This document shows, in pieces, positions 483-10,171 of a DNA stretch of 64,000 nucleotides. The notes beneath the pieces were generated by a model. It saw nothing but the letters and a program-made list of their open reading frames with translations, searched no databases and had not been told where the DNA came from. The stretch covers positions 413 to 64,412 of the forward strand of contig NZ_JAGKTC010000001.1 of the NCBI RefSeq assembly GCF_017939625.1, given 5' to 3'. A program made the translations under genes and the position numbers. Source of the DNA: Pseudoxanthomonas helianthi (lineage in GTDB: Bacteria > Pseudomonadota > Gammaproteobacteria > Xanthomonadales > Xanthomonadaceae). Within the stretch, counting starts at the first letter, position 1; every line of letters starts with the position of its first letter.

Positions 483-752
483 ATGAACTCAATCCGTAAA
501 ACACCCATAAGCAGTTCATCCAAGCTAGTGCTCGTCCTATTTGTGGTATTTGGCGCCATTCGGGTTGTTGACTTCATCTTCTACGGACAACAAACGCGCG
601 ACCTGCTGGCCGGGATTGGTTTCTCCCTCATGGCATTTGGCGTTTACAAAAATGGTTTCGGCAAGACCGCTCCAGATGCAAACGGCCGCTACGCATCCAT
701 CGTTGGCGCGGGCTTGGTACTGGCGGCAATCGTCATGCGCTTCTGGCGGTAA
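483..752 (+). CDS. Small integral membrane protein, unknown function
   Basis: An 89-aa protein with three hydrophobic stretches (about residues 14-33, 40-54 and 69-86) and a basic N-terminus, so it is probably an inner-membrane protein with two to three spans. No family is recognised. It lies between two integron-like recombination sites and is of lower GC than the chromosomal genes to the right, which suggests that it is the second gene of a cassette array. The upstream ribosome-binding site is weak, as is common for cassette genes that rely on readthrough. Confidence 0.6.
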   Translation: MNSIRKTPISSSSKLVLVLFVVFGAIRVVDFIFYGQQTRDLLAGIGFSLMAFGVYKNGFGKTAPDANGRYASIVGAGLVLAAIVMRFWR

Positions 753-1872: not shown

Positions 1873-3981
1873 CTATGTAGCGGCTTCAGCCAGCCCCGGC
1901 TGCTGGCTCCGAACGTGGTGCCGCATCTCCCGAACGATCCGCCCTTGTTCCATTACCAGCACTCGATCCGCACTGGCAATGGTCTCGGGACGATGGGCCA
2001 CGATGACCTTGGTCAATCTCAGCGCTTTCACCGCATCGTTTACCAGCCGTTCCCTCATCACATCCAGATGGCTGGTAGCCTCGTCGAGGAACAGCAACCT
2101 GGGCTCGCGATACAACGCCCTGGCCAGAATGACCCGCTGCTTCTGCCCGCCCGATAGCGAGCTGCCCATGTCGCCGATCAGGCTGTGGTAGCCCATCGGC
2201 ATCGCGGCGATCTCGTCATGGACGGCCGCCAGCCGCGCAGCCGCTTCGACACGGCCCTGATCGAAGTCCGGATCGAAGAAGCCGATGTTGTCTGCGATGC
2301 TGCCAGCGAACAGTTGGTCGTCCTGCATCACCGCACCCACGATGGCCCGGACATTGCGCGGCCCGATCTTGCGCAAATCGTAGCCGCCGACACTGACGCT
2401 GCCTGTCGTCGGCTGCAGGAGACCCAGCATCAATTTGACCAAGGTGGTTTTGCCGCATCCCGATGGGCCAATCACGGCGACGGACTCACCCGACTCCACG
2501 GTGAAGCTGCAATCCTTCAACACCCACGGTTCGCCGTCGGCATAACGGAACGACAGGTTTTCCACCGCGATGCGGGTGTCGGCCGGCGGTGGGACTTCCG
2601 GCCTGCCCAGTGCCTCCTCCGGCGGGGTCAACACGATGTCGGAGAGGCGTTCGCCGTGCAGGCGCAACATGCGAAACTCGACCCATTTGTCGATCAACGC
2701 GCCCATGCGCTGGGCGAACTGGTCTTTGTAAGCCAGGTAGGCGATCAGCATGCCCACCGAGAACACATTCTGCAGGGCCAGCACCGCGCCGATCCAGATC
2801 ACAGCGATGCGTTCGGCGCCGAAGACCAGTTGGCTGGCACTGCTAAAACCCAAGCCCATGCGCGCCAGCCGAACCTCCTGATTGACGGTCTCGGTCATCA
2901 GGTTGTCGTAGGTCGCGCGGCGTTGGGATTCCTGCCCGGCCACCTTGACGCTCTGCATGCCGCGCAAGGATTCCAGCAGATGGCTTTGTTGCTTGGCCCC
3001 GGCGATCAGCTGCTGCTCGGTGCGGTCGCGGACAGGACGGAAGGCAACGGCGCGGATGGCGACGTATAGCCCCACCGCCAGCAAGGTGACCAAGGCCAGC
3101 TTCCAGCTGTAGAACAGCATCAGCCCCAGTGTGACCACGGCCATCAATCCATCGATCATGGCTTCGACGAAACTGGTGGTCAGGGTCTTCTGGATGGCCT
3201 GCACGGACGACATCCGCGAGGTAATGTCGCCCAGATGGCGCTTCTCGAAGAAATCCAGCGGCAGCTTCAGCAGATGGGCGAAGACGTTGCCCGTCCATTG
3301 CAGGCCGAGCTTCGACGAGAGGTACACCACCGACCAGCCGCGCAGCAGGCCGATGCCGATCTGCGACAGCAATGCCAGTCCGAAGCCCAATCCCAGCACG
3401 GTCAGCAGATCCTTGTCGGCTGACACCAGCACCTGATCCACGACCCATTGCATGAAGAACGGGGCCAGGATGACGAAGACCTGCAAGGCCACCGACAGCA
3501 GCAGGATTTGCGTCAATGCGCGCCACAAGCCATCTACGGGGCCTGTCAATTGCCGGGCGGTAACGGCAGGCGTCGCCTTCTGCGGATTGAATTCGGCAGT
3601 GGGCGCCAGTTCCAGCGCCACGCCGGTGAAGTGGTCGGAGACCTCGGAAAGCGAAAGCCGGCGTTCGCCGATGGCCGGATCGAAGATCGTGACCTTCGAC
3701 TTGCCGACCTTGGCCAGCACGACGAAGTGATTCAGATCCCAATGCAGCACGCAGGGCAATTTGAGTTGCCCCAAGTGTTCCATTTCCAACCGCAACGGAC
3801 GGGTGGAAAAACCTAGCTGCTGGGCGATATGAATCAACTGGTTGAGCTTTGCGCCCTTCAGCGACAACGAGAAGCGACGGCGTATATCCGGCAGCCCGAC
3901 ACGTATCCCATGTGCATCGGCAACCATGGCCAGAGACACTAAGCCGCATTCGGCCGCTTCGGATTGCAAAATGAGTTTCAT
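1873..3981 (-). CDS. Bacteriocin exporter: C39 peptidase-ABC transporter (CvaB/LktB type)
   Basis: A 702-aa bifunctional exporter that cleaves double-glycine leaders and secretes the mature peptides. The N-terminal peptidase C39 domain carries C12 in SEAAECGLVSL, H85 in DLNHFVVL and D101 in IFDP, forming a complete catalytic set. A transmembrane domain (about 150-430) follows, then an ATPase with Walker A GPSGCGKTT (505-513), signature LSGGQKQR (609-616) and Walker B LLFLDEA. The start is the first in-frame ATG after an in-frame TGA. It lies downstream of two double-glycine peptide genes and a small membrane protein, and is separated by them from its likely HlyD partner. All read leftward, so this is the dedicated processing and export ATPase of the locus. 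Confidence 0.93.
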   Translation of the reverse strand: MKLILQSEAAECGLVSLAMVADAHGIRVGLPDIRRRFSLSLKGAKLNQLIHIAQQLGFSTRPLRLEMEHLGQLKLPCVLHWDLNHFVVLAKVGKSKVTIFDPAIGERRLSLSEVSDHFTGVALELAPTAEFNPQKATPAVTARQLTGPVDGLWRALTQILLLSVALQVFVILAPFFMQWVVDQVLVSADKDLLTVLGLGFGLALLSQIGIGLLRGWSVVYLSSKLGLQWTGNVFAHLLKLPLDFFEKRHLGDITSRMSSVQAIQKTLTTSFVEAMIDGLMAVVTLGLMLFYSWKLALVTLLAVGLYVAIRAVAFRPVRDRTEQQLIAGAKQQSHLLESLRGMQSVKVAGQESQRRATYDNLMTETVNQEVRLARMGLGFSSASQLVFGAERIAVIWIGAVLALQNVFSVGMLIAYLAYKDQFAQRMGALIDKWVEFRMLRLHGERLSDIVLTPPEEALGRPEVPPPADTRIAVENLSFRYADGEPWVLKDCSFTVESGESVAVIGPSGCGKTTLVKLMLGLLQPTTGSVSVGGYDLRKIGPRNVRAIVGAVMQDDQLFAGSIADNIGFFDPDFDQGRVEAAARLAAVHDEIAAMPMGYHSLIGDMGSSLSGGQKQRVILARALYREPRLLFLDEATSHLDVMRERLVNDAVKALRLTKVIVAHRPETIASADRVLVMEQGRIVREMRHHVRSQQPGLAEAAT

Positions 3982-4072: not shown

Positions 4073-4336
4073 CTAGCGCTCCTGCCAAATGACAACGCTT
4101 GCCACAAGCGAAAATAACCCCAGCGCAAATAGAACGAGGACAAACGCGCGACGAAAGGACGAGATCTCAGGATCTTTCGAATATTGACCCGACCCTATAT
4201 CAACCTTTACCGCAAGAGCCAGGAGAAAGAAGCCCGCCATTCCATACCACCCTGTAGCACCTGAACCTAGCCGTTCCGCCACAATACCTAATGTAAAAAG
4301 ACCGACCGAAATCAGGCTTCGTTTTTGACTCGTCAT
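4073..4336 (-). CDS. Small membrane protein, candidate bacteriocin immunity protein
   Basis: An 87-aa protein with three predicted membrane segments (about residues 7-20, 31-45 and 63-84) and no recognised family. The ATG at 4336 is preferred over the one at 4342 because GGAG lies 6 nt before it but abuts the earlier one. It sits between the two peptide genes and the C39 exporter, on the same strand, in the position where self-immunity genes are often found. Its composition is poorer in GC than the flanking chromosome. The immunity role is inferred from location and membrane nature only; a transport accessory role is possible. Confidence 0.65.
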   Translation of the reverse strand: MTSQKRSLISVGLFTLGIVAERLGSGATGWYGMAGFFLLALAVKVDIGSGQYSKDPEISSFRRAFVLVLFALGLFSLVASVVIWQER

Positions 4337-4368
4337 TTTCATCTCCAGAAATCAAAATCCCAGAACTC

Positions 4369-4395
4369 GCCATCCGGGAATCGCTCCCGGATGGC
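4369..4395 (-). terminator. Perfect 11-bp hairpin between peptide genes and downstream genes
   Basis: GCCATCCGGGA pairs perfectly with TCCCGGATGGC across a 5-nt loop, 46 nt after the second peptide gene. No uninterrupted U-run follows on the transcribed (leftward) side, only GATTTTGATTTC about 10 nt later. It may be an attenuator or mRNA-stabilising structure that favours peptide over exporter expression rather than a full terminator. Confidence 0.6.
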
Positions 4396-4441
4396 ATAAA
4401 ACAGCTACGTCATGGAATCCCGATCTACAGCCACGCCAGCT

Positions 4442-4594
4442 CTAATTGATATAAGTCGTCGGCAGAGCAGGCATTGACTCAAGGGCACCCCTAAGCGCCC
4501 TTCCCAGCCAGCTTCCCCATTCATAGGTCATTTCATCACCGCCGGAAACCTGGTCAACCTCGAAAGAACTAAGTTCCTGGATTTCTTTCTTCAT
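4442..4594 (-). CDS. Double-glycine leader peptide B (bacteriocin/microcin precursor)
   Basis: A 50-aa precursor. The leader MKKEIQELSSFEVDQVSGG fits the C39 consensus exactly: L(-12), S(-11), E(-8), V(-7), V(-4), G(-2), G(-1). Cleavage would give a 31-aa peptide starting DEMTYEWG with a GSWLG motif (G27-G31, GxxxG type), an amphipathic RALRGALES segment and the end LPTTYIN. It is mildly acidic and has no cysteine. The frame is open upstream for 25 more codons, but GGAG 7 nt before this ATG and the fit of the leader set the start at 4594. The gene begins 1 nt after the stop of peptide A, so the two are probably translationally coupled. Confidence 0.85.
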   Translation of the reverse strand: MKKEIQELSSFEVDQVSGGDEMTYEWGSWLGRALRGALESMPALPTTYIN

Positions 4595-4595
4595 C

Positions 4596-4742
4596 TCAAT
4601 TCTCCGGGTCAAATCCATCAAGGAAGCCATCAAAGAAGTCTCTGATATTGTTCCGCTCGTAGTAGACAAATGCCAACCCAGCTAATAGGGCGGCATTGCC
4701 ACCATCAACGATGGAAACTTCATGCTCATTAAGGTCACGCAT
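4596..4742 (-). CDS. Double-glycine leader peptide A (bacteriocin/microcin precursor, 48 aa)
   Basis: A 48-aa ORF too short for usual gene-calling cut-offs. Its leader MRDLNEHEVSIVDGG matches the double-glycine consensus: L(-12), E(-8), V(-7), V(-4), GG. The predicted 33-aa mature peptide starts NAALLAGLAFVYYE and ends GFLDGFDPEN. It contains an AxxxG motif (A18-G22) and a GxxxG motif (G39-G43), and is clearly acidic (six D/E against two R). GGAG lies 7 nt before the ATG. GC is about 46% by hand count, far below the rest of the window. Its stop is 1 nt from the start of peptide B, and it lies 65 nt after the HlyD gene. A paired (class IIb-like) bacteriocin is the best reading. Confidence 0.8.
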   Translation of the reverse strand: MRDLNEHEVSIVDGGNAALLAGLAFVYYERNNIRDFFDGFLDGFDPEN

Positions 4743-4807: not shown

Positions 4808-6073
4808 TCATACATTGGCGAATTTCCCCTTTAATGAGTACAGGGGCTCGAACACCCATTCAATTAATCGGCGTTTCTCGCCCAAGATGTCTGCATCTAC
4901 CAGCATCCCCGGCTTCAACGGTTCCGGCTTGCCATAGGCTGTCACCGCCTGCTTCGCCAGCGATACGGTGATGCGATAGAACGGCTCGCTGAAGTCCGCG
5001 TTGCCGATCAATGCGCCCAACTCGCCGGAGCCCAAGGCGCTGCGGCTGATCCTTACCACTTGTCCCTGGTAGTGTCCGAACTTCTGGTACGGATAGGCTT
5101 GATATCGCAGGAACACCTTATCGCCAGGTTCGACGAAGCCGATGGCACGGCTCGGCACAAGCAGCTGGGCCTGCAACTTCGAATTGGACGGCAATAGAGT
5201 CATCAGCGGCTGACCTGCCTGCACTGCCTGCCCCGGTTCCGCCAAACGACTGGCAACCAGACCGCCCACAGGCGCATCGACGCGCAATTCTCCATTGGCC
5301 TCTTGCTGCACGCGCTCCTGATCTAGCGCTGCCAGATCACGACGCGTGGCCGCCAGCGATGCATCCCGCTGAGTCGGCAATTCGTGTATCGACTGTTCCA
5401 ATTGTGCGATGTTGCGTCGTAAAGAGGTAGCCTGGCGCTCCAATGCCTGCTGTGCATTGAGCAGGTCCAGCACTGACTGCTGCTGCTGAGCCAGCGACAC
5501 CTGGCTGACGTACTTCTGCTCGGCCACACTCTTGTAGCGGGACACGGTCTCGTTGCCGATGCGCACCTGCTCGCGACGGCTGGTGATTTCATTCTCGATC
5601 TGGGCCAGTTCCCGGCGGGCCGCAGTCAGTTGGCGCACCGCCCCGGCCATCTGGACATCTATCTGCGTCACCTGCGAGCGACCCAAATCTACTAGGCTGC
5701 TGCTGCGGGTTCGCAAGCCCTCTCGAATAACGGCCAGTGCGTCGCTCCCTGATGCCGTGACTCGCGGCACGTCGATCCTGGCCAACGGTGAGCCCGCACC
5801 GACTTGTGCGCCTTCTTCCTGATAAAGGCGCCCCACGATGCCTGCCGTGGGCGCAACGACGGTGGACAGGCCCCGATCGGGCACCAGCTGGCCGACCACA
5901 TGAGAACGCCGCGTATAGGTACCGAGCGCGAGGAAGAGAACAATCGTTGACGCAACTGCTGCAGCGACACCCGTGAGAACCCAAAGCCCTATTGGCTGGG
6001 CAAGCGAAATGCCACCTAGCCAGCTCGTGCGCTTTGCCTCCAGCACTTCCTTGCGGAACAGTCCCTGCGTCAT
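4808..6073 (-). CDS. HlyD-family periplasmic adaptor (CvaA type) for peptide export
   Basis: A 421-aa membrane fusion protein. After a short cytoplasmic N-terminus (LFRKEVLEAKRTSWLG) comes one membrane segment (about 27-50), a first lipoyl half (VVAPTAGIVGRLYQEEGAQV), a long coiled-coil hairpin (about 110-270), the second lipoyl half (LRVDAPVGGLVASRLAEPGQAV) and a beta-barrel region. In type I secretion such proteins link an inner-membrane ABC exporter to a TolC-like channel; no TolC gene is in this window. It is the first gene of the leftward unit HlyD - peptide A - peptide B - membrane protein - C39 exporter. Its upstream region is shared with a divergent XRE regulator. Confidence 0.9.
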   Translation of the reverse strand: MTQGLFRKEVLEAKRTSWLGGISLAQPIGLWVLTGVAAAVASTIVLFLALGTYTRRSHVVGQLVPDRGLSTVVAPTAGIVGRLYQEEGAQVGAGSPLARIDVPRVTASGSDALAVIREGLRTRSSSLVDLGRSQVTQIDVQMAGAVRQLTAARRELAQIENEITSRREQVRIGNETVSRYKSVAEQKYVSQVSLAQQQQSVLDLLNAQQALERQATSLRRNIAQLEQSIHELPTQRDASLAATRRDLAALDQERVQQEANGELRVDAPVGGLVASRLAEPGQAVQAGQPLMTLLPSNSKLQAQLLVPSRAIGFVEPGDKVFLRYQAYPYQKFGHYQGQVVRISRSALGSGELGALIGNADFSEPFYRITVSLAKQAVTAYGKPEPLKPGMLVDADILGEKRRLIEWVFEPLYSLKGKFANV

Positions 6074-6353: not shown

Positions 6354-6734
6354 ATGGAGTTTGCCATGCGCATTCGTGCCGCGAGACGCAGCGCAGGCAT
6401 GTCCCAGCGGGAGCTGGCGACGCGTCTGGGCGTTACCCGCGGTGCGGTTGCCAATTGGGAAAGCGACAATGTCGCTCCCGCCACGAAGCGCCTTCAACGT
6501 ATCGCACAAGTCACTCGCGTCAATTTCGAATGGCTCGCAACTGGACGCGGACCGGTGAAGAGGGACTCGCCCCCGGATGAAGTCCATGCCCTGGACACCG
6601 TGACGGAAACGGTGTTCGATCCCTTGGAACTGCGCCTGCTAAGAGCATTCCGGAACATTTCCCGCCACGACCGCATGCGCATCGTCGACTCCGTCCAGAG
6701 CCTTGCGGGCCGGAAATCCATATCATCCGACTAG
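6354..6734 (+). CDS. XRE-family transcriptional regulator
   Basis: A 126-aa DNA-binding protein. Residues 5-60 form an HTH_3 (Cro/CI) domain: RIRAARRSAGMSQRELATRLGVTRGAVANWESDNVAP, followed by RIAQVTRVNFEWLATGRG. The C-terminal half (LELRLLRAFRNISRHDRMRIVDSVQSL) resembles the short helical tail of phage-type repressors. The ATG at 6354 is chosen over the upstream ATG at 6315 because AGGGG lies 6 nt before it and the HTH starts right after. It is divergent from the bacteriocin export unit and is probably its regulator, acting on palindromes in the shared intergenic region. Confidence 0.85.
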   Translation: MEFAMRIRAARRSAGMSQRELATRLGVTRGAVANWESDNVAPATKRLQRIAQVTRVNFEWLATGRGPVKRDSPPDEVHALDTVTETVFDPLELRLLRAFRNISRHDRMRIVDSVQSLAGRKSISSD

Positions 6735-6804: not shown

Positions 6805-9804
6805 CTACCAAGCCACGCGCAGCCCCAGATTACCCTCGACGGTTTCGCGGTCCAGACCTTCGTCGCCGGTGTCGGAGGTGTAGTCGACGGCCAGATAGAA
6901 ACTGGCATGCTCGTCGAACTTCGCGACCAGCCCAGCACCGAATTCGACCGCGTTGTATTTCTGCTGCGTGACGATGCGGTCGGCGTCGAAACGAACCTCG
7001 TCCTGGCCACCGAAGCCGCGCCAGTAGTTGAGCTTCAGGTACGGCTGCCATGATCCGCGCGCCGTGGCGTAGTCGGCCGACAGCCGCAAGCCGACACGGC
7101 CGGTGAGCGCGTTGTCCGAATCGAAAGCGACATCGGCGAAAGCATCGTGCTGCCTGTCGAAGGACACACGTTGCCAGACGACCTGCGCCTGCGGCTCCAG
7201 CGCCCAGCGTCCGCCTTCGCGCCAACGCACGGGACGGCCGATTTCGAGGGACGCGGTTAGGCCGTCGCCTTTCAGGTCGATGCCCAGCCCGCGCGAGGAC
7301 GTGGACTTGCCGTCGTAGCGGCTGCCCAGCAAAACGGCATCCAGGTAGCCACCTTGTTCCCCGATGCGCGACCAGTACAGGCCGAGGTGATCGTCGTCGA
7401 GCTCGGTCTTGCCGACGGTCAGGTTGTTCCAGCCCAGGGCGAAGCCGCGCACATCGCCATCGGCACGGGTGCGGCCCACGAACAGGCCGAAGTGATCGCG
7501 CCGGTTGTCGCCTTCGTGCGCGTAGATGTCCACACCGATCTGCAGCCCCGTAATGGAACCGTCGAAGACCGGTGCCACCGTGCCGCGCCAATGCTGCTCG
7601 GTGTCCTGGCCGATCGCGCGAACCCATGCCGCACGCGCGGCGCCATCGCCCTGCAGCAGCATTTGTTCGCCCTGGCGCTCGTGGAAGGTGCCCAGGCTTG
7701 CGAGCGACAGCTGATGCACGACCGGTGGCACGACTGCGTAGGTCGGCGTCTCGACGCGATAGAGCGGAATCACGCCTTGATCGTTTGCGGTTGCCGCAAT
7801 AGCGCCGGGAGTGGGAGGAGATGGAGCTGTCGATTGACTTGGCACCGGTGCGGGATCCATCGCTAACGGTGGCTCGGCGGGCGGCGGCGACGGCGGCTCC
7901 GCGGGCGGCGGTTCGGACGGCGGAGCTGGCGGCGGCGCAGGCGGCACTTCCGGATCGGGATCGTCCGGCGTTTCCAGCGAAGGCGGAGGCGGCAGAGCGG
8001 GCGGCGGAGTTGCCGGCGGCTCGGGTGGTGCCGGCGGAGGCATGGTGGGTGTGGGCTCCAGGGGATCCGGCGCCGGTGCCGGCGCGGGCGGCTCAGGAGC
8101 GACCGCCAGGGCCGATCGCAGGTACCAGTTCTCGGCCGTGCCCGCGCTGACGCCGCCCTTGAACAGGAAATATTCGAACGCTCCCGCCGCGACCGGCGCA
8201 GTCAACGCGAAGGCATCGCCGGTCGAAGTGGCGCCATCGATGGCTTCGACCACGAGGATGCCGTCCAGCACGGTGGCGCCGCCCGTTCCGCCCAGGTTGA
8301 CGATGCCCAAGCCGGTGCCGCCGCTGGCATTGCCGCCGGAAATCACCAGCCGATCCGACGCTGAACTGTCGTCGCCAAGCACGGTTTGCAGATACACCGC
8401 GGCGTTGTTGCCGATGTAGTTGCCGGCGATGGTGAAACGATCGGTGGCACCAGAGCTTCCATTGGTCAAATCGATGCGCCCGCCATTGAGCACGGTGGCC
8501 AGTTGGCCGGCGTCGAAAGCGCGAATCGAGGCGTTCGCCCCATTGCCCGCGAACAACGTGCTGGTTGGGTCGACCATCAGGCTGCCGGTCCCGCTGCCCG
8601 AATCGCCCAGCACCAGGTCGCCGTCGAAGGTCAGTTCGGTGTCGTCGCGTGCGTTCACCGTTTCCCACTGCTGGAAGCGGGCGACGCCGTCGGTGCTGAC
8701 GTTGTCGAAGTTGAGCGTGTCGCTGCCGAGACCGCCGAGGATGCCCGGCGTCGCGCCTAGATGCGATCGATTCAGGCTGGCCAGCGTTGCGCTGTCGGTG
8801 CCGTCACCCAGGTCGACCGCGCCATAGATCACGCCACCGCCGTTCCACGAGAACGTGTCGTCGCCGCTGCTGATGCGCACTTCGCCGCGCACGATGCTAC
8901 CGCTGACGCTGACGTTGTCGTTGCCGCCGCTGACGCTAATGTTGCCGCCGATGTAACCATCGCTCAGGCGGATCGTGTCGTTGCCGAAACCGGTGACCAG
9001 GTTGCCGTCGATGGTGCCGCCGGACATGTCGAAGGTATTGTCGTCCAGCTTCATGTTGACCCGGCCGATGCGTCCCCCGGTCATCTCGGCGTAGTCGCCG
9101 TCCTCGAAAGCGCCGACGATGCGTCCGCCGCTCATGCGGAACGTGTCCAGGTTGTCGCCCTGCAGCAACGCGCCGACCTCGCCGCCGCTCATCACGAAAT
9201 CGTCCACGCCGCCGCCTTGCTGCACGGTGCCGGTGACACCGCCACCGTTGACCGTCATGCGATCGGCGCCGGCGCCCTGGTCAACAGCATCCAGTTGGCC
9301 GCCTTCAAGCAGCAGCACATCATCGCCGTCGCCTTGCGTCACCGCGCCGACGATCCGCCCGGCAAGCATCTCCATGCGGTCGTTGCCCGCGCCGAAGCCG
9401 ACACCGATACCGGCGCCGGTGATGTTGCCGCGGTTGATCAGCGTGCTGCCGAGGCTACCCGTGAACAGCACACCCGCCCCGCCCTGCGCGAGAAGGCTGC
9501 CGTCATTGTTGACCCGCCCCTGGTCGCCCAACTGCACTGCCGGCCCCGCCGCAATGTCCAGCGCGGCGCCACTGGCGACATTGACGGTCACGCCGGTACT
9601 GCCGGCGGCGGCGATGGCGGTTGTACTGGGATTGGGGGCAGCGGCAGTGCAGGTGACGGTCTGGCCGCTGGCCGGAGCGGTAAGGTCGCATTCGGCCTGC
9701 GCAGCGAACGGCAGTCCCAGCGCGATACCGCTCACGAGACCGGACGTGCCGTGGTGCAGGATCCGGGTAATGCAGGCAGAGAGCCAACGCTTCGAAACGG
9801 ACAT
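6805..9804 (-). CDS. Autotransporter (type Va) with repeat passenger and proline-rich linker
   Basis: A 999-aa outer-membrane autotransporter. A signal peptide (to about residue 36, ending AAQA) precedes a passenger built from repeated glycine-rich units with recurring MSGGxxxG and GxGxDxxxx patterns, typical of a right-handed beta-helix. Residues ~585-690 are an extreme proline-rich linker, and the last ~270 residues are an autotransporter beta-barrel with alternating aromatic strands ending in LGLRVAW. The ATG at 9804 is preferred over an upstream TTG (9810) because GAGGA lies 6 nt before it. It is monocistronic. The passenger shows no catalytic motif, so adhesion or aggregation is more likely than enzymatic activity. 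Confidence 0.9.
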   Translation of the reverse strand: MSVSKRWLSACITRILHHGTSGLVSGIALGLPFAAQAECDLTAPASGQTVTCTAAAPNPSTTAIAAAGSTGVTVNVASGAALDIAAGPAVQLGDQGRVNNDGSLLAQGGAGVLFTGSLGSTLINRGNITGAGIGVGFGAGNDRMEMLAGRIVGAVTQGDGDDVLLLEGGQLDAVDQGAGADRMTVNGGGVTGTVQQGGGVDDFVMSGGEVGALLQGDNLDTFRMSGGRIVGAFEDGDYAEMTGGRIGRVNMKLDDNTFDMSGGTIDGNLVTGFGNDTIRLSDGYIGGNISVSGGNDNVSVSGSIVRGEVRISSGDDTFSWNGGGVIYGAVDLGDGTDSATLASLNRSHLGATPGILGGLGSDTLNFDNVSTDGVARFQQWETVNARDDTELTFDGDLVLGDSGSGTGSLMVDPTSTLFAGNGANASIRAFDAGQLATVLNGGRIDLTNGSSGATDRFTIAGNYIGNNAAVYLQTVLGDDSSASDRLVISGGNASGGTGLGIVNLGGTGGATVLDGILVVEAIDGATSTGDAFALTAPVAAGAFEYFLFKGGVSAGTAENWYLRSALAVAPEPPAPAPAPDPLEPTPTMPPPAPPEPPATPPPALPPPPSLETPDDPDPEVPPAPPPAPPSEPPPAEPPSPPPAEPPLAMDPAPVPSQSTAPSPPTPGAIAATANDQGVIPLYRVETPTYAVVPPVVHQLSLASLGTFHERQGEQMLLQGDGAARAAWVRAIGQDTEQHWRGTVAPVFDGSITGLQIGVDIYAHEGDNRRDHFGLFVGRTRADGDVRGFALGWNNLTVGKTELDDDHLGLYWSRIGEQGGYLDAVLLGSRYDGKSTSSRGLGIDLKGDGLTASLEIGRPVRWREGGRWALEPQAQVVWQRVSFDRQHDAFADVAFDSDNALTGRVGLRLSADYATARGSWQPYLKLNYWRGFGGQDEVRFDADRIVTQQKYNAVEFGAGLVAKFDEHASFYLAVDYTSDTGDEGLDRETVEGNLGLRVAW

Positions 9805-10171
9805 GGGCAATCCTCATCCTGGAAATTGCTTGCACGTGCGCGATTGAAATCCGGGAATGCGATTCGGATACGACAGACCTTCCGACTTCGACGAAACGCG
9901 TTCCGCATCGAGATCGGTCACTAAATAGATGAGGCACGGCGCTGTTGCAACAGTTTGCGACGTCCGAACGAATGCAATCGCCAAGGCCGTGAGGGAACAG
10001 TGACGTCCGTCATGCACGTTTCGTGCTGTTGCGCGTCGCAGGCATGGCGAGCGAAAAACCCGCTTTGTTCGAATCTTCGCGCCGCATTTGCATCGGCGAA
10101 TTCAAGATGGCCCTTCCTCTGCGCCGCCCGCACCGGGCATATCAAGCCCTGGAGCCCCGAACGAGGCCGAC
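9805..10171. other. 367-nt intergenic region upstream of autotransporter and acetyltransferase
   Basis: This divergent spacer contains a perfect 12-bp palindrome CTGTTGCAACAG (9942-9953), about 140 nt upstream of the autotransporter start, that could bind a dimeric regulator. An open frame runs through 10088-10171 into the acetyltransferase, but its translation has no family character and the acetyltransferase start is better placed at 10172. No other gene or RNA was recognised. Confidence 0.4.

What the first reader, a model, noticed from the sequence alone, without database searches (positions are those of the whole stretch)
4442..4742. Two overlooked double-glycine peptides form a compact two-peptide bacteriocin pair
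Two short ORFs (48 and 50 aa), 1 nt apart, each begin with a near-perfect C39 leader (L at -12, E at -8, V at -7 and -4, GG at the cleavage site) and each has its own GGAG 7 nt before ATG. Mature peptides would be 33 and 31 aa, both with GxxxG motifs that in class IIb bacteriocins mediate helix pairing. Peptide A is below usual gene-calling size. Unusually, both are acidic and lack cysteine, unlike most cationic bacteriocins.
Basis: partly seen in the sequence, partly recalled or inferred. Interest (0 to 1): 0.93.

Follow-up and report, generated by a model that had tools for sequence, protein, structure and literature searches.

The report
Acidic two-peptide bacteriocin cassette in Pseudoxanthomonas
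Two tiny neighbouring genes look like the two halves of one antibacterial weapon, sitting among the pump genes that would cut and export them; similar pairs recur in related bacteria, although two-part weapons of this kind are known mainly from a very different group of bacteria.

Summary
Confirmed: two ORFs on the minus strand (A 4742-4596, 48 aa; B 4594-4442, 50 aa; 1 nt apart) with double-glycine leaders that outscore the rest of the window and 60 of 60 shuffles. They sit in a cluster: HlyD adaptor, A, B, 3-helix protein, C39 ABC exporter. Genus mates lack this pair; 8 of 12 that have the exporter show other double-glycine peptides, so the cargo turns over. The pairing recurs: 11 loci hold an A-type peptide (C-terminal FxxGxxxG; one deviates), and in all 11 a B-type peptide (GxxxG at mature residues 6-8) lies 1-123 nt away, in either order. 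The closest pairs are in a Stenotrophomonas and two unnamed family members. A resembles lactococcin G-beta and plantaricin S-beta; B resembles lactococcin G-alpha only faintly. No curated cut-off is reached, and window B's homology is marginal. Best reading: an acidic, class-IIb-like two-peptide bacteriocin of a Gram-negative; activity is untested. Leads: leaderless single-helix copies of A follow the pair in two relatives (candidate immunity by mimicry), and broken adaptor or exporter ends between cassettes suggest cassette exchange.

The parts
4596..4742 (-). Peptide A gene (48 aa; leader 15, mature 33 aa, C-terminal DFFDGFLDGF with GxxxG); beta-like partner
   Evidence: left-out profile rank 1 of 20,546 ORFs less members, E 0.0039, and rank 1, E 1.6e-13 with the close set
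4442..4594 (-). Peptide B gene (50 aa; leader 19, mature 31 aa, N-terminal TYEWGSWLG with GxxxG); alpha-like partner
   Evidence: pairwise to L205 B none of 5000 shuffles as good; left-out profile weak: rank 7816, rank 4 at E 4.3
4073..4342 (-). 89-aa membrane protein P0003, candidate immunity protein (three predicted helices 5-25, 29-53, 58-88)
   Evidence: position; single-sequence AlphaFold2, mean pLDDT 70.7; no family above cut-off
1873..3981 (-). C39 peptidase-containing ABC exporter P0004 (702 aa)
   Evidence: Pfam Peptidase_C39 E 1.8e-34, ABC_membrane, ABC_tran
4808..6073 (-). HlyD-family periplasmic adaptor P0005 (421 aa)
   Evidence: Pfam HlyD_3 E 1.3e-18, HlyD_D23 E 1.5e-16
4368..4396 (-). 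12-pair RNA hairpin between B and P0003; possible attenuator (role inferred)
   Evidence: fold of 4343-4441 is -39.3 kcal/mol, z -2.79, 4 of 200 shuffles as good
6354..6734 (+). Divergent HTH regulator P0007 (126 aa); belonging to the system is a guess
   Evidence: Pfam HTH_3 E 5.3e-15

Best explanation
The cluster makes a two-peptide (class-IIb-like) bacteriocin. A and B are encoded 1 nt apart and both carry C39 leaders (shown); the co-encoded C39 ABC exporter and HlyD adaptor, with an outer-membrane channel from elsewhere, would cut after GG and export both (inferred from domains). Mature A (hydrophobic helix, kink, second helix with a C-terminal GxxxG) and mature B (N-terminal GxxxG) would pack helix to helix in the inner membrane of a susceptible relative and permeabilise it, as proposed for plantaricin S and lactococcin G (inferred). 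P0003 would protect the producer (inferred from position). How the pair crosses the target's outer membrane is unknown. The cargo between adaptor and exporter is exchanged among relatives.
For: Leaders and operon. A-B neighbours in 11 of 11 A-type loci: window, L205, L206, L220, L007, L067, L108, L119, L173, L112, L043; order A-B in 6, B-A in 5. Less biased checks: 6 of the 7 A peptides listed have a neighbour found by leader and distance alone, and all 6 carry GxxxG at residues 6-8, against 15 of 121 other GG peptides; the seventh, L119, has a B with a variant leader that ranks first (E 3.3e-8) when left out of the B profile; two new pairs came from an A-only profile and one from a profile of A and leaderless relatives. 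Profile comparison: A to lactococcin G-beta P 0.00042, A to alpha 0.6; B to alpha 0.0065 over only 5 columns, B to beta 0.71. First PDB hit of the A profile is plantaricin S-beta, E 0.11. In L220 the third gene is a CPBP-type protease (Rce1-like, E 5.2e-16), a kind known among class IIb immunity proteins (PMC6957408, passages).
Against: Mature peptides are acidic. No family cut-off is reached: A precursor 16.7 bits against 37 for lactococcin G-beta, and mature window A alone matches no family; B 13.7 against 27.1 for Bacteriocin_IIc. Window B is at rank 7816 with the wide B profile and at rank 4, E 4.3, with the close one. Direct pairwise comparison with lactococcin G is weak (A to beta 751 of 5000 shuffles as good; B to alpha 154 of 5000). 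Several B partners were chosen by eye with the motif in view. P0003 resembles no immunity candidate of the relatives (rank 372). L220 A deviates (GxxxS, leader ending SAG) and L119 B has a variant leader. No activity data.
Confidence: 0.66

Rival explanations
1. Two independent one-peptide microcins that share an operon; each acts alone.
For: 39 of 121 other distinct GG peptides in these loci also have a GG neighbour within 130 nt, so neighbouring GG genes are common without evidence of joint action.
Against: A-type and B-type carry different motifs and recur together in 11 of 11 loci; in the five loci with a related hairpin protein one such gene follows the pair.
Confidence: 0.16
2. [quoted passage not shown]
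For: Type I secretion, two cargo peptides, and a small membrane protein with three predicted helices, like the three-TM CdzI (PMC5380434, passages and section 13).
Against: Published Cdz-like criteria include 60-151 residues and glycine zippers; here 48 and 50 aa with a single GxxxG each.
Confidence: 0.1
3. Secreted peptide signals rather than toxins.
For: GG leaders with C39 exporters also serve signal peptides (recalled); the peptides are acidic; an HTH gene is divergent.
Against: No sensor kinase among the seven proteins scanned; cargo differs between close relatives while the exporter is kept.
Confidence: 0.06
4. Chance ORFs.
For: Short; the pair region is in 1 of 38 genus genomes.
Against: Leader scores above the maximum of 60 shuffles; A has homologues in other genera next to a GG peptide.
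Confidence: 0.02

Closest known systems
Lactococcin G / enterocin 1071 / enterocin C (class IIb two-peptide bacteriocins)
   Same: Two GG-leader peptides with GxxxG, early in the alpha-like and late in the beta-like partner; exporter with C39 domain (recalled for lactococcin G); membrane immunity protein. Enterocin C binds BacA as receptor (PMC12765074, abstract and opening of the introduction).
   Different: Gram-negative host with HlyD adaptor; acidic; below the curated cut-off; receptor unknown.
Plantaricin S (class IIb)
   Same: Motifs that matter there, G9xxxG13 in alpha and S17xxxG21 in beta (PMC6382864, passages), lie roughly where B (G8xxxG12) and A (G24xxxG28) carry theirs; first PDB match of the A profile (6go0, E 0.11).
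   Different: Similarity is confined to about 15 residues and is not significant by itself.
CdzC/CdzD of Caulobacter crescentus
   Same: Two-protein bacteriocin of a Gram-negative, type I secretion, small membrane immunity protein (PMC5380434, passages and section 13).
   Different: 84-86 aa, glycine zippers, surface-bound; window peptides are 48 and 50 aa without zipper.
Nap peptides of Neisseria gonorrhoeae
   Same: GG-leader bacteriocin-like peptides of a Gram-negative with a protein 30% identical to a domain of LagC (PMC11798529, passages).
   Different: Three cationic peptides, linked to autolysis; sequences not compared here.
Class II microcins (MccV type), incl. candidates from Xanthomonas
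   Same: C39 exporter, membrane fusion protein and GG peptide; Xanthomonas candidates screened in E. coli (PMC13174018, passages).
   Different: Screened as single peptides; 'two-peptide' does not occur in that paper's main text.

Membership tests
Class IIb two-peptide bacteriocin | Two different precursor peptides encoded side by side | tested here: met
Class IIb two-peptide bacteriocin | Double-glycine leaders and a C39 exporter in the cluster | tested here: met
Class IIb two-peptide bacteriocin | GxxxG or GxxxG-like motif in each mature peptide | tested here: met
   G24xxxG28 in A, G8xxxG12 in B; in the family 10 of 11 A (L220 has GxxxS) and 11 of 11 assigned B
Class IIb two-peptide bacteriocin | A dedicated membrane immunity protein | tested here: inconclusive
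   P0003 follows the pair and is predicted as three helices, but matches no immunity family and not the candidates of relatives (rank 372)
Class IIb two-peptide bacteriocin | Cationic peptides (usual, not universal; recalled) | tested here: not met
   net charges -4 and -2
Class IIb two-peptide bacteriocin | Both peptides needed for full activity | not testable with these tools
   needs peptides and indicator strains
Lactococcin G-beta/enterocin 1071B family NF038034 (for A) | Score above the curated cut-off of 37 bits | tested here: not met
   precursor 16.7 bits, E 0.0064, residues 35-44; mature peptide alone no match
Bacteriocin_IIc PF10439 (for B) | Score above the gathering cut-off of 27.1 bits | tested here: not met
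   13.7 bits
Cdz-like system | Cargo of 60-151 residues with glycine-zipper motif | tested here: not met
   48 and 50 aa, one GxxxG each; criteria from PMC5380434 section 13
Class II microcin (type I secretion) | Peptide under 10 kDa with GG leader beside C39 ABC exporter and HlyD adaptor | tested here: met
Class II microcin (type I secretion) | Match to microcin profile models | not tested
   the cinful models are not on hand

The most novel reading that the evidence does not exclude
This is a Gram-negative family of lactococcin-G-like two-peptide weapons in which immunity has evolved from the weapon itself: a leaderless, membrane-anchored copy of peptide A is encoded right after the pair and occupies B or the receptor as a decoy. 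Orphan copies of that decoy sit in genomes without the exporter and protect them, and whole weapon cassettes move between strains by recombination in the flanking adaptor and exporter genes.
Probability: 0.3. Interest if true: 0.8.

Novelty: new variant of a known kind. Interest (0 to 1): 0.58.

Why it matters
Two-peptide bacteriocins with paired GxxxG helices are described almost wholly from Gram-positive bacteria (recalled; PMC6957408 abstract speaks of Gram-positive producers). In the listings of my ten literature searches (open-access papers only) the only characterised two-protein Gram-negative case I saw was Cdz, with the Nap peptides as a related precedent. A recurring, short, acidic pair in this family of bacteria gives testable material: which half binds the receptor, whether BacA/UppP could be the target in a Gram-negative too, and how such peptides pass an outer membrane. 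The leaderless A copies allow a direct test of immunity by mimicry; the mechanism of class IIb immunity was called a mystery in 2019 (PMC6957408, passage).

Tried and rejected
(1) Assigning window B by profile: failed with the wide set (rank 7816), weak with the close set (rank 4, E 4.3). B is kept on position, motif and pairwise scores (shuffles as good: L205 B 0 of 5000, L206 B 25 of 5000, L220 B 1404 of 5000). (2) PDB search with the B profile: first hits were designed armadillo repeats, judged spurious. (3) Linking P0003 or P0006 to the immunity candidates of relatives: ranks 372 and 3245, rejected; the hairpin family itself holds for L007, L108, L119, L173 and, less firmly, L025, while L067 and L112 drop out when left out (ranks 25 and 178). 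(4) A profile over 369 genomes of the class: 6 with a match, one being this genome; of the other five I read three loci (L200, L201, L204) and saw no leader; L202 and L203 were not read. (5) Of the 18 matches, four in frames of 287-635 aa (L195, L196, L197, L199) were not read; of the 23 matches, nine in long frames (L222-L227, L229-L231) were not read. (6) Plasmid records: no match to peptide A. (7) Promoter-like sites: 1 found, 1.8 expected. (8) Membership in Cdz: rejected on length and zipper. L054 (split exporter) was left out of the count of remnants; duplicate loci were merged (177 loci with exporter, 133 distinct). L025 has a B-type motif but its neighbour was not counted as A. Models of A (precursor helices 12-29 and 33-42, pLDDT 77.6) and P0003 rest on single sequences.

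Full report
Anatomy. The two ORFs lie on the minus strand: A at 4742-4596 and B at 4594-4442, one base apart, each with GGAG seven bases before ATG. 5' to 3' the cluster reads: HlyD adaptor (6073-4808), A, B, an 89-aa membrane protein P0003 (4342-4073), C39-ABC exporter (3981-1873). A stable hairpin (4396-4368) lies between B and P0003. The window is in a 3.59-Mb genome whose genus group contains G011, which by contig number and position is the named Pseudoxanthomonas sp. Root630 (L007), so the genus is very probably Pseudoxanthomonas.

More than chance. A 14-column leader matrix trained on 40 leaders of other loci, chosen by a strict motif, gives 28.6 and 29.1; the third best place in the window gives 8.8; 60 dinucleotide shuffles of the window reach at most 19.8. 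A leader profile finds three places in the own genome at E up to 10: A, B and one more (L236).

Turnover in close relatives. In 38 genomes of the genus group only this one has the 501-bp pair region; 13 of 38, this one included, have the exporter at E up to 1e-150, as have 142 of 395 family genomes at 1e-180. Of the 12 other genus genomes with exporter, 8 show a different GG peptide (score 9 or more) in the stretch held; in G021, G009, G029 and G031 I saw none at the exporter locus. Of 133 distinct exporter loci, 132 were tallied for GG peptides at score 15 or more: 47 none, 53 one, 32 two or more.

Recurring pairs. A type A (C-terminal FxxGxxxG, mostly [DS]FxxGFxxG[FYL]) and a type B (mature N-terminus with GxxxG, mostly YxxGxxxG) stand out. 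A-type peptides with a leader were found in 11 loci: window, L205, L206, L220, L007, L067 (Dyella tabacisoli), L108, L119, L173, L112 and L043 (Stenotrophomonas pavanii). In all 11 a B-type peptide lies beside it, with gaps, in that order, of 1, 14, 7, 123, 10, 15, 11, 12, 16, 10 and 83 nt; order A-B in six (window, L205, L206, L220, L067, L112) and B-A in five. GxxxG starts at mature residue 6-8 in all 11 B (L119); Tyr stands three before it in 9 of 11 (not in L206 and L043). Two leaders are variants that my leader scan missed: L119 B and L220 A; L220 A also has GxxxS and Ala for the Phe.

How biased is the pairing? I chose several B partners with the motif in view. Cleaner tests: six of the seven A peptides listed have a neighbour found by leader and distance alone, and all six carry GxxxG at 6-8, against 15 of 121 other GG peptides; L119's B ranks first (E 3.3e-8) in the B profile built without it; and three pairs were reached from the A side only, L205 and L206 with a profile of A peptides, L220 with a profile of A peptides and leaderless relatives. 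GG neighbours as such are common: 39 of 121 other GG peptides have one within 130 nt.

Strength of homology. Left out of the wide set, window A ranks first of the non-member ORFs (E 0.0039); six of eight A rank first, L043 third, L007 fourth. In the close set window A, L205 A and L206 A rank first (window E 1.6e-13) and L220 A fifth. For B, six of nine rank first and L067 second in the wide set, but window B is 7816th and L043 B 1131st; in the close set L205 B is first at E 0.4, window B fourth at E 4.3, L206 B 208th, and L220 B does not appear. Pairwise, no shuffle of 5000 equals the match of window B to L205 B; 25 do for L206 B and 1404 for L220 B. So A is a family; B is mainly a motif, with one good match to the window's.

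Likeness to known two-peptide bacteriocins. The A alignment against lactococcin G-beta gives P 0.00042 over 18 columns (probability 34%) and 0.6 against alpha; B gives 0.0065 against alpha over five columns (probability 6%) and 0.71 against beta. Among PDB chains plantaricin S-beta comes first for A at a weak E of 0.11; the next are unrelated transporters from 0.66. In NCBIfam, the precursor of window A best matches the lactococcin G-beta model (E 0.0064), its mature part alone matches nothing, one of eight mature A peptides matches that model at 0.0012, L205 A matches class IIb lactobin A/cerein 7B at 0.0034 mainly through the leader, and L220 B's best match is the lactococcin G-alpha model at 0.073; all are below cut-off. 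Pairwise scores of the window peptides with lactococcin G are weak (as good: B to alpha 154, A to beta 751 of 5000). In plantaricin S the motifs that matter are G9xxxG13 in alpha and S17xxxG21 in beta, the latter aligned with G18xxxG22 of lactococcin G-beta (PMC6382864, passages); B has G8xxxG12 and A G24xxxG28. It may well work like them; common descent is not shown.

Third genes. After the pair come: a 3-helix protein in the window; a small hairpin protein in L007, L108, L119, L173 and L025, of which L119's was found by profile in the right place; a CPBP/Rce1-like protease in L220; and in L205 and L206 a leaderless single-TM protein that repeats the core of A. A profile of the four leader-bearing A peptides of this clade finds leaderless relatives in L206, L207, L208, L209, L217, L218 and L219 at E 1.4e-8 to 0.0093 among 22,128 ORFs and L221 at 0.29; L205's copy is not among the 22 rows printed. 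Shuffles as good: L206 A to its leaderless neighbour 0 of 5000, L205 20 of 5000. Of eight genomes where such a copy lies away from an A-B pair (G200, G166, G314, G307, G084, G203, G029, G173), three (G200, G166, G307) have no exporter at E up to 1e-100. I read the copies as candidate decoy immunity genes; the reverse, that A arose from an older small membrane protein, is equally open. The window has no such copy: the profile that includes them finds only A itself in the own genome.

Cassette exchange. Remnants of the HlyD 3' end lie between cassettes in L007, L009, L113 and L072, and of the exporter's 5' end in L108, L135, L139 and L115 (L115's only 21 residues, E 0.001): 8 of 133 distinct loci. 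L007 has two cargo sets separated by such a remnant. This fits acquisition of cargo by recombination in the flanking genes. No remnant was reported for the window.

Literature. Ten searches of open-access full text. Read in part: PMC5380434 (passages, section 13), PMC13174018, PMC6957408, PMC11798529 and PMC6382864 (passages), PMC12765074 (abstract and opening). I saw no description of this pair family in those listings; that is not proof of absence.

Verdict. Observation confirmed; the two-peptide reading is the best one, at about two chances in three; new variant of a known kind.

Noticed in passing
L007 4867-5046; L009 4984-5100; L113 4825-5031; L072 4456-4665; L108 4543-4707; L135 5426-5226; L139 6781-6426; L115 4006-4068: Broken copies of the adaptor's 3' end or the exporter's 5' end between cargo cassettes, in 8 of 133 distinct loci: likely marks of cassette exchange.
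   Followed up: partly
L205 7498-7331; L206 7589-7443; L207 6976-6803; L208 7170-7015; L209 7362-7192; L217 1435-1605; L218 1438-1599; L219 1444-1617: Leaderless single-helix small proteins sharing the core of peptide A; next to the A-B pair in L205 and L206, elsewhere without it.
   Followed up: partly
L236 1501-1665 (own genome, contig 2 at 737822): A third double-glycine precursor (MKSLNENEISAVSGG plus 39 aa); no exporter seen in the 3 kb held.
   Followed up: no
L123 2885-1771: Five short GG-leader-like peptides in tandem just downstream of the exporter.
   Followed up: no
L086 4431-4670: GG-leader precursor whose mature part repeats GPNGGW; a shorter GPNxxW peptide in L070.
   Followed up: no
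window 483-752, +: 89-aa membrane protein P0006 beyond the exporter on the other strand, no family; unrelated by profile to the immunity candidates.
   Followed up: partly
window 6805-9810, -: ORF of 1001 aa beside the cluster that reads like a surface autotransporter (impression only; not scanned).
   Followed up: no
L205 8302-8814, +: A further precursor-like ORF (MRELTYEVMSVSGG...) followed by an 80-aa membrane protein, divergent from the A-B pair.
   Followed up: no
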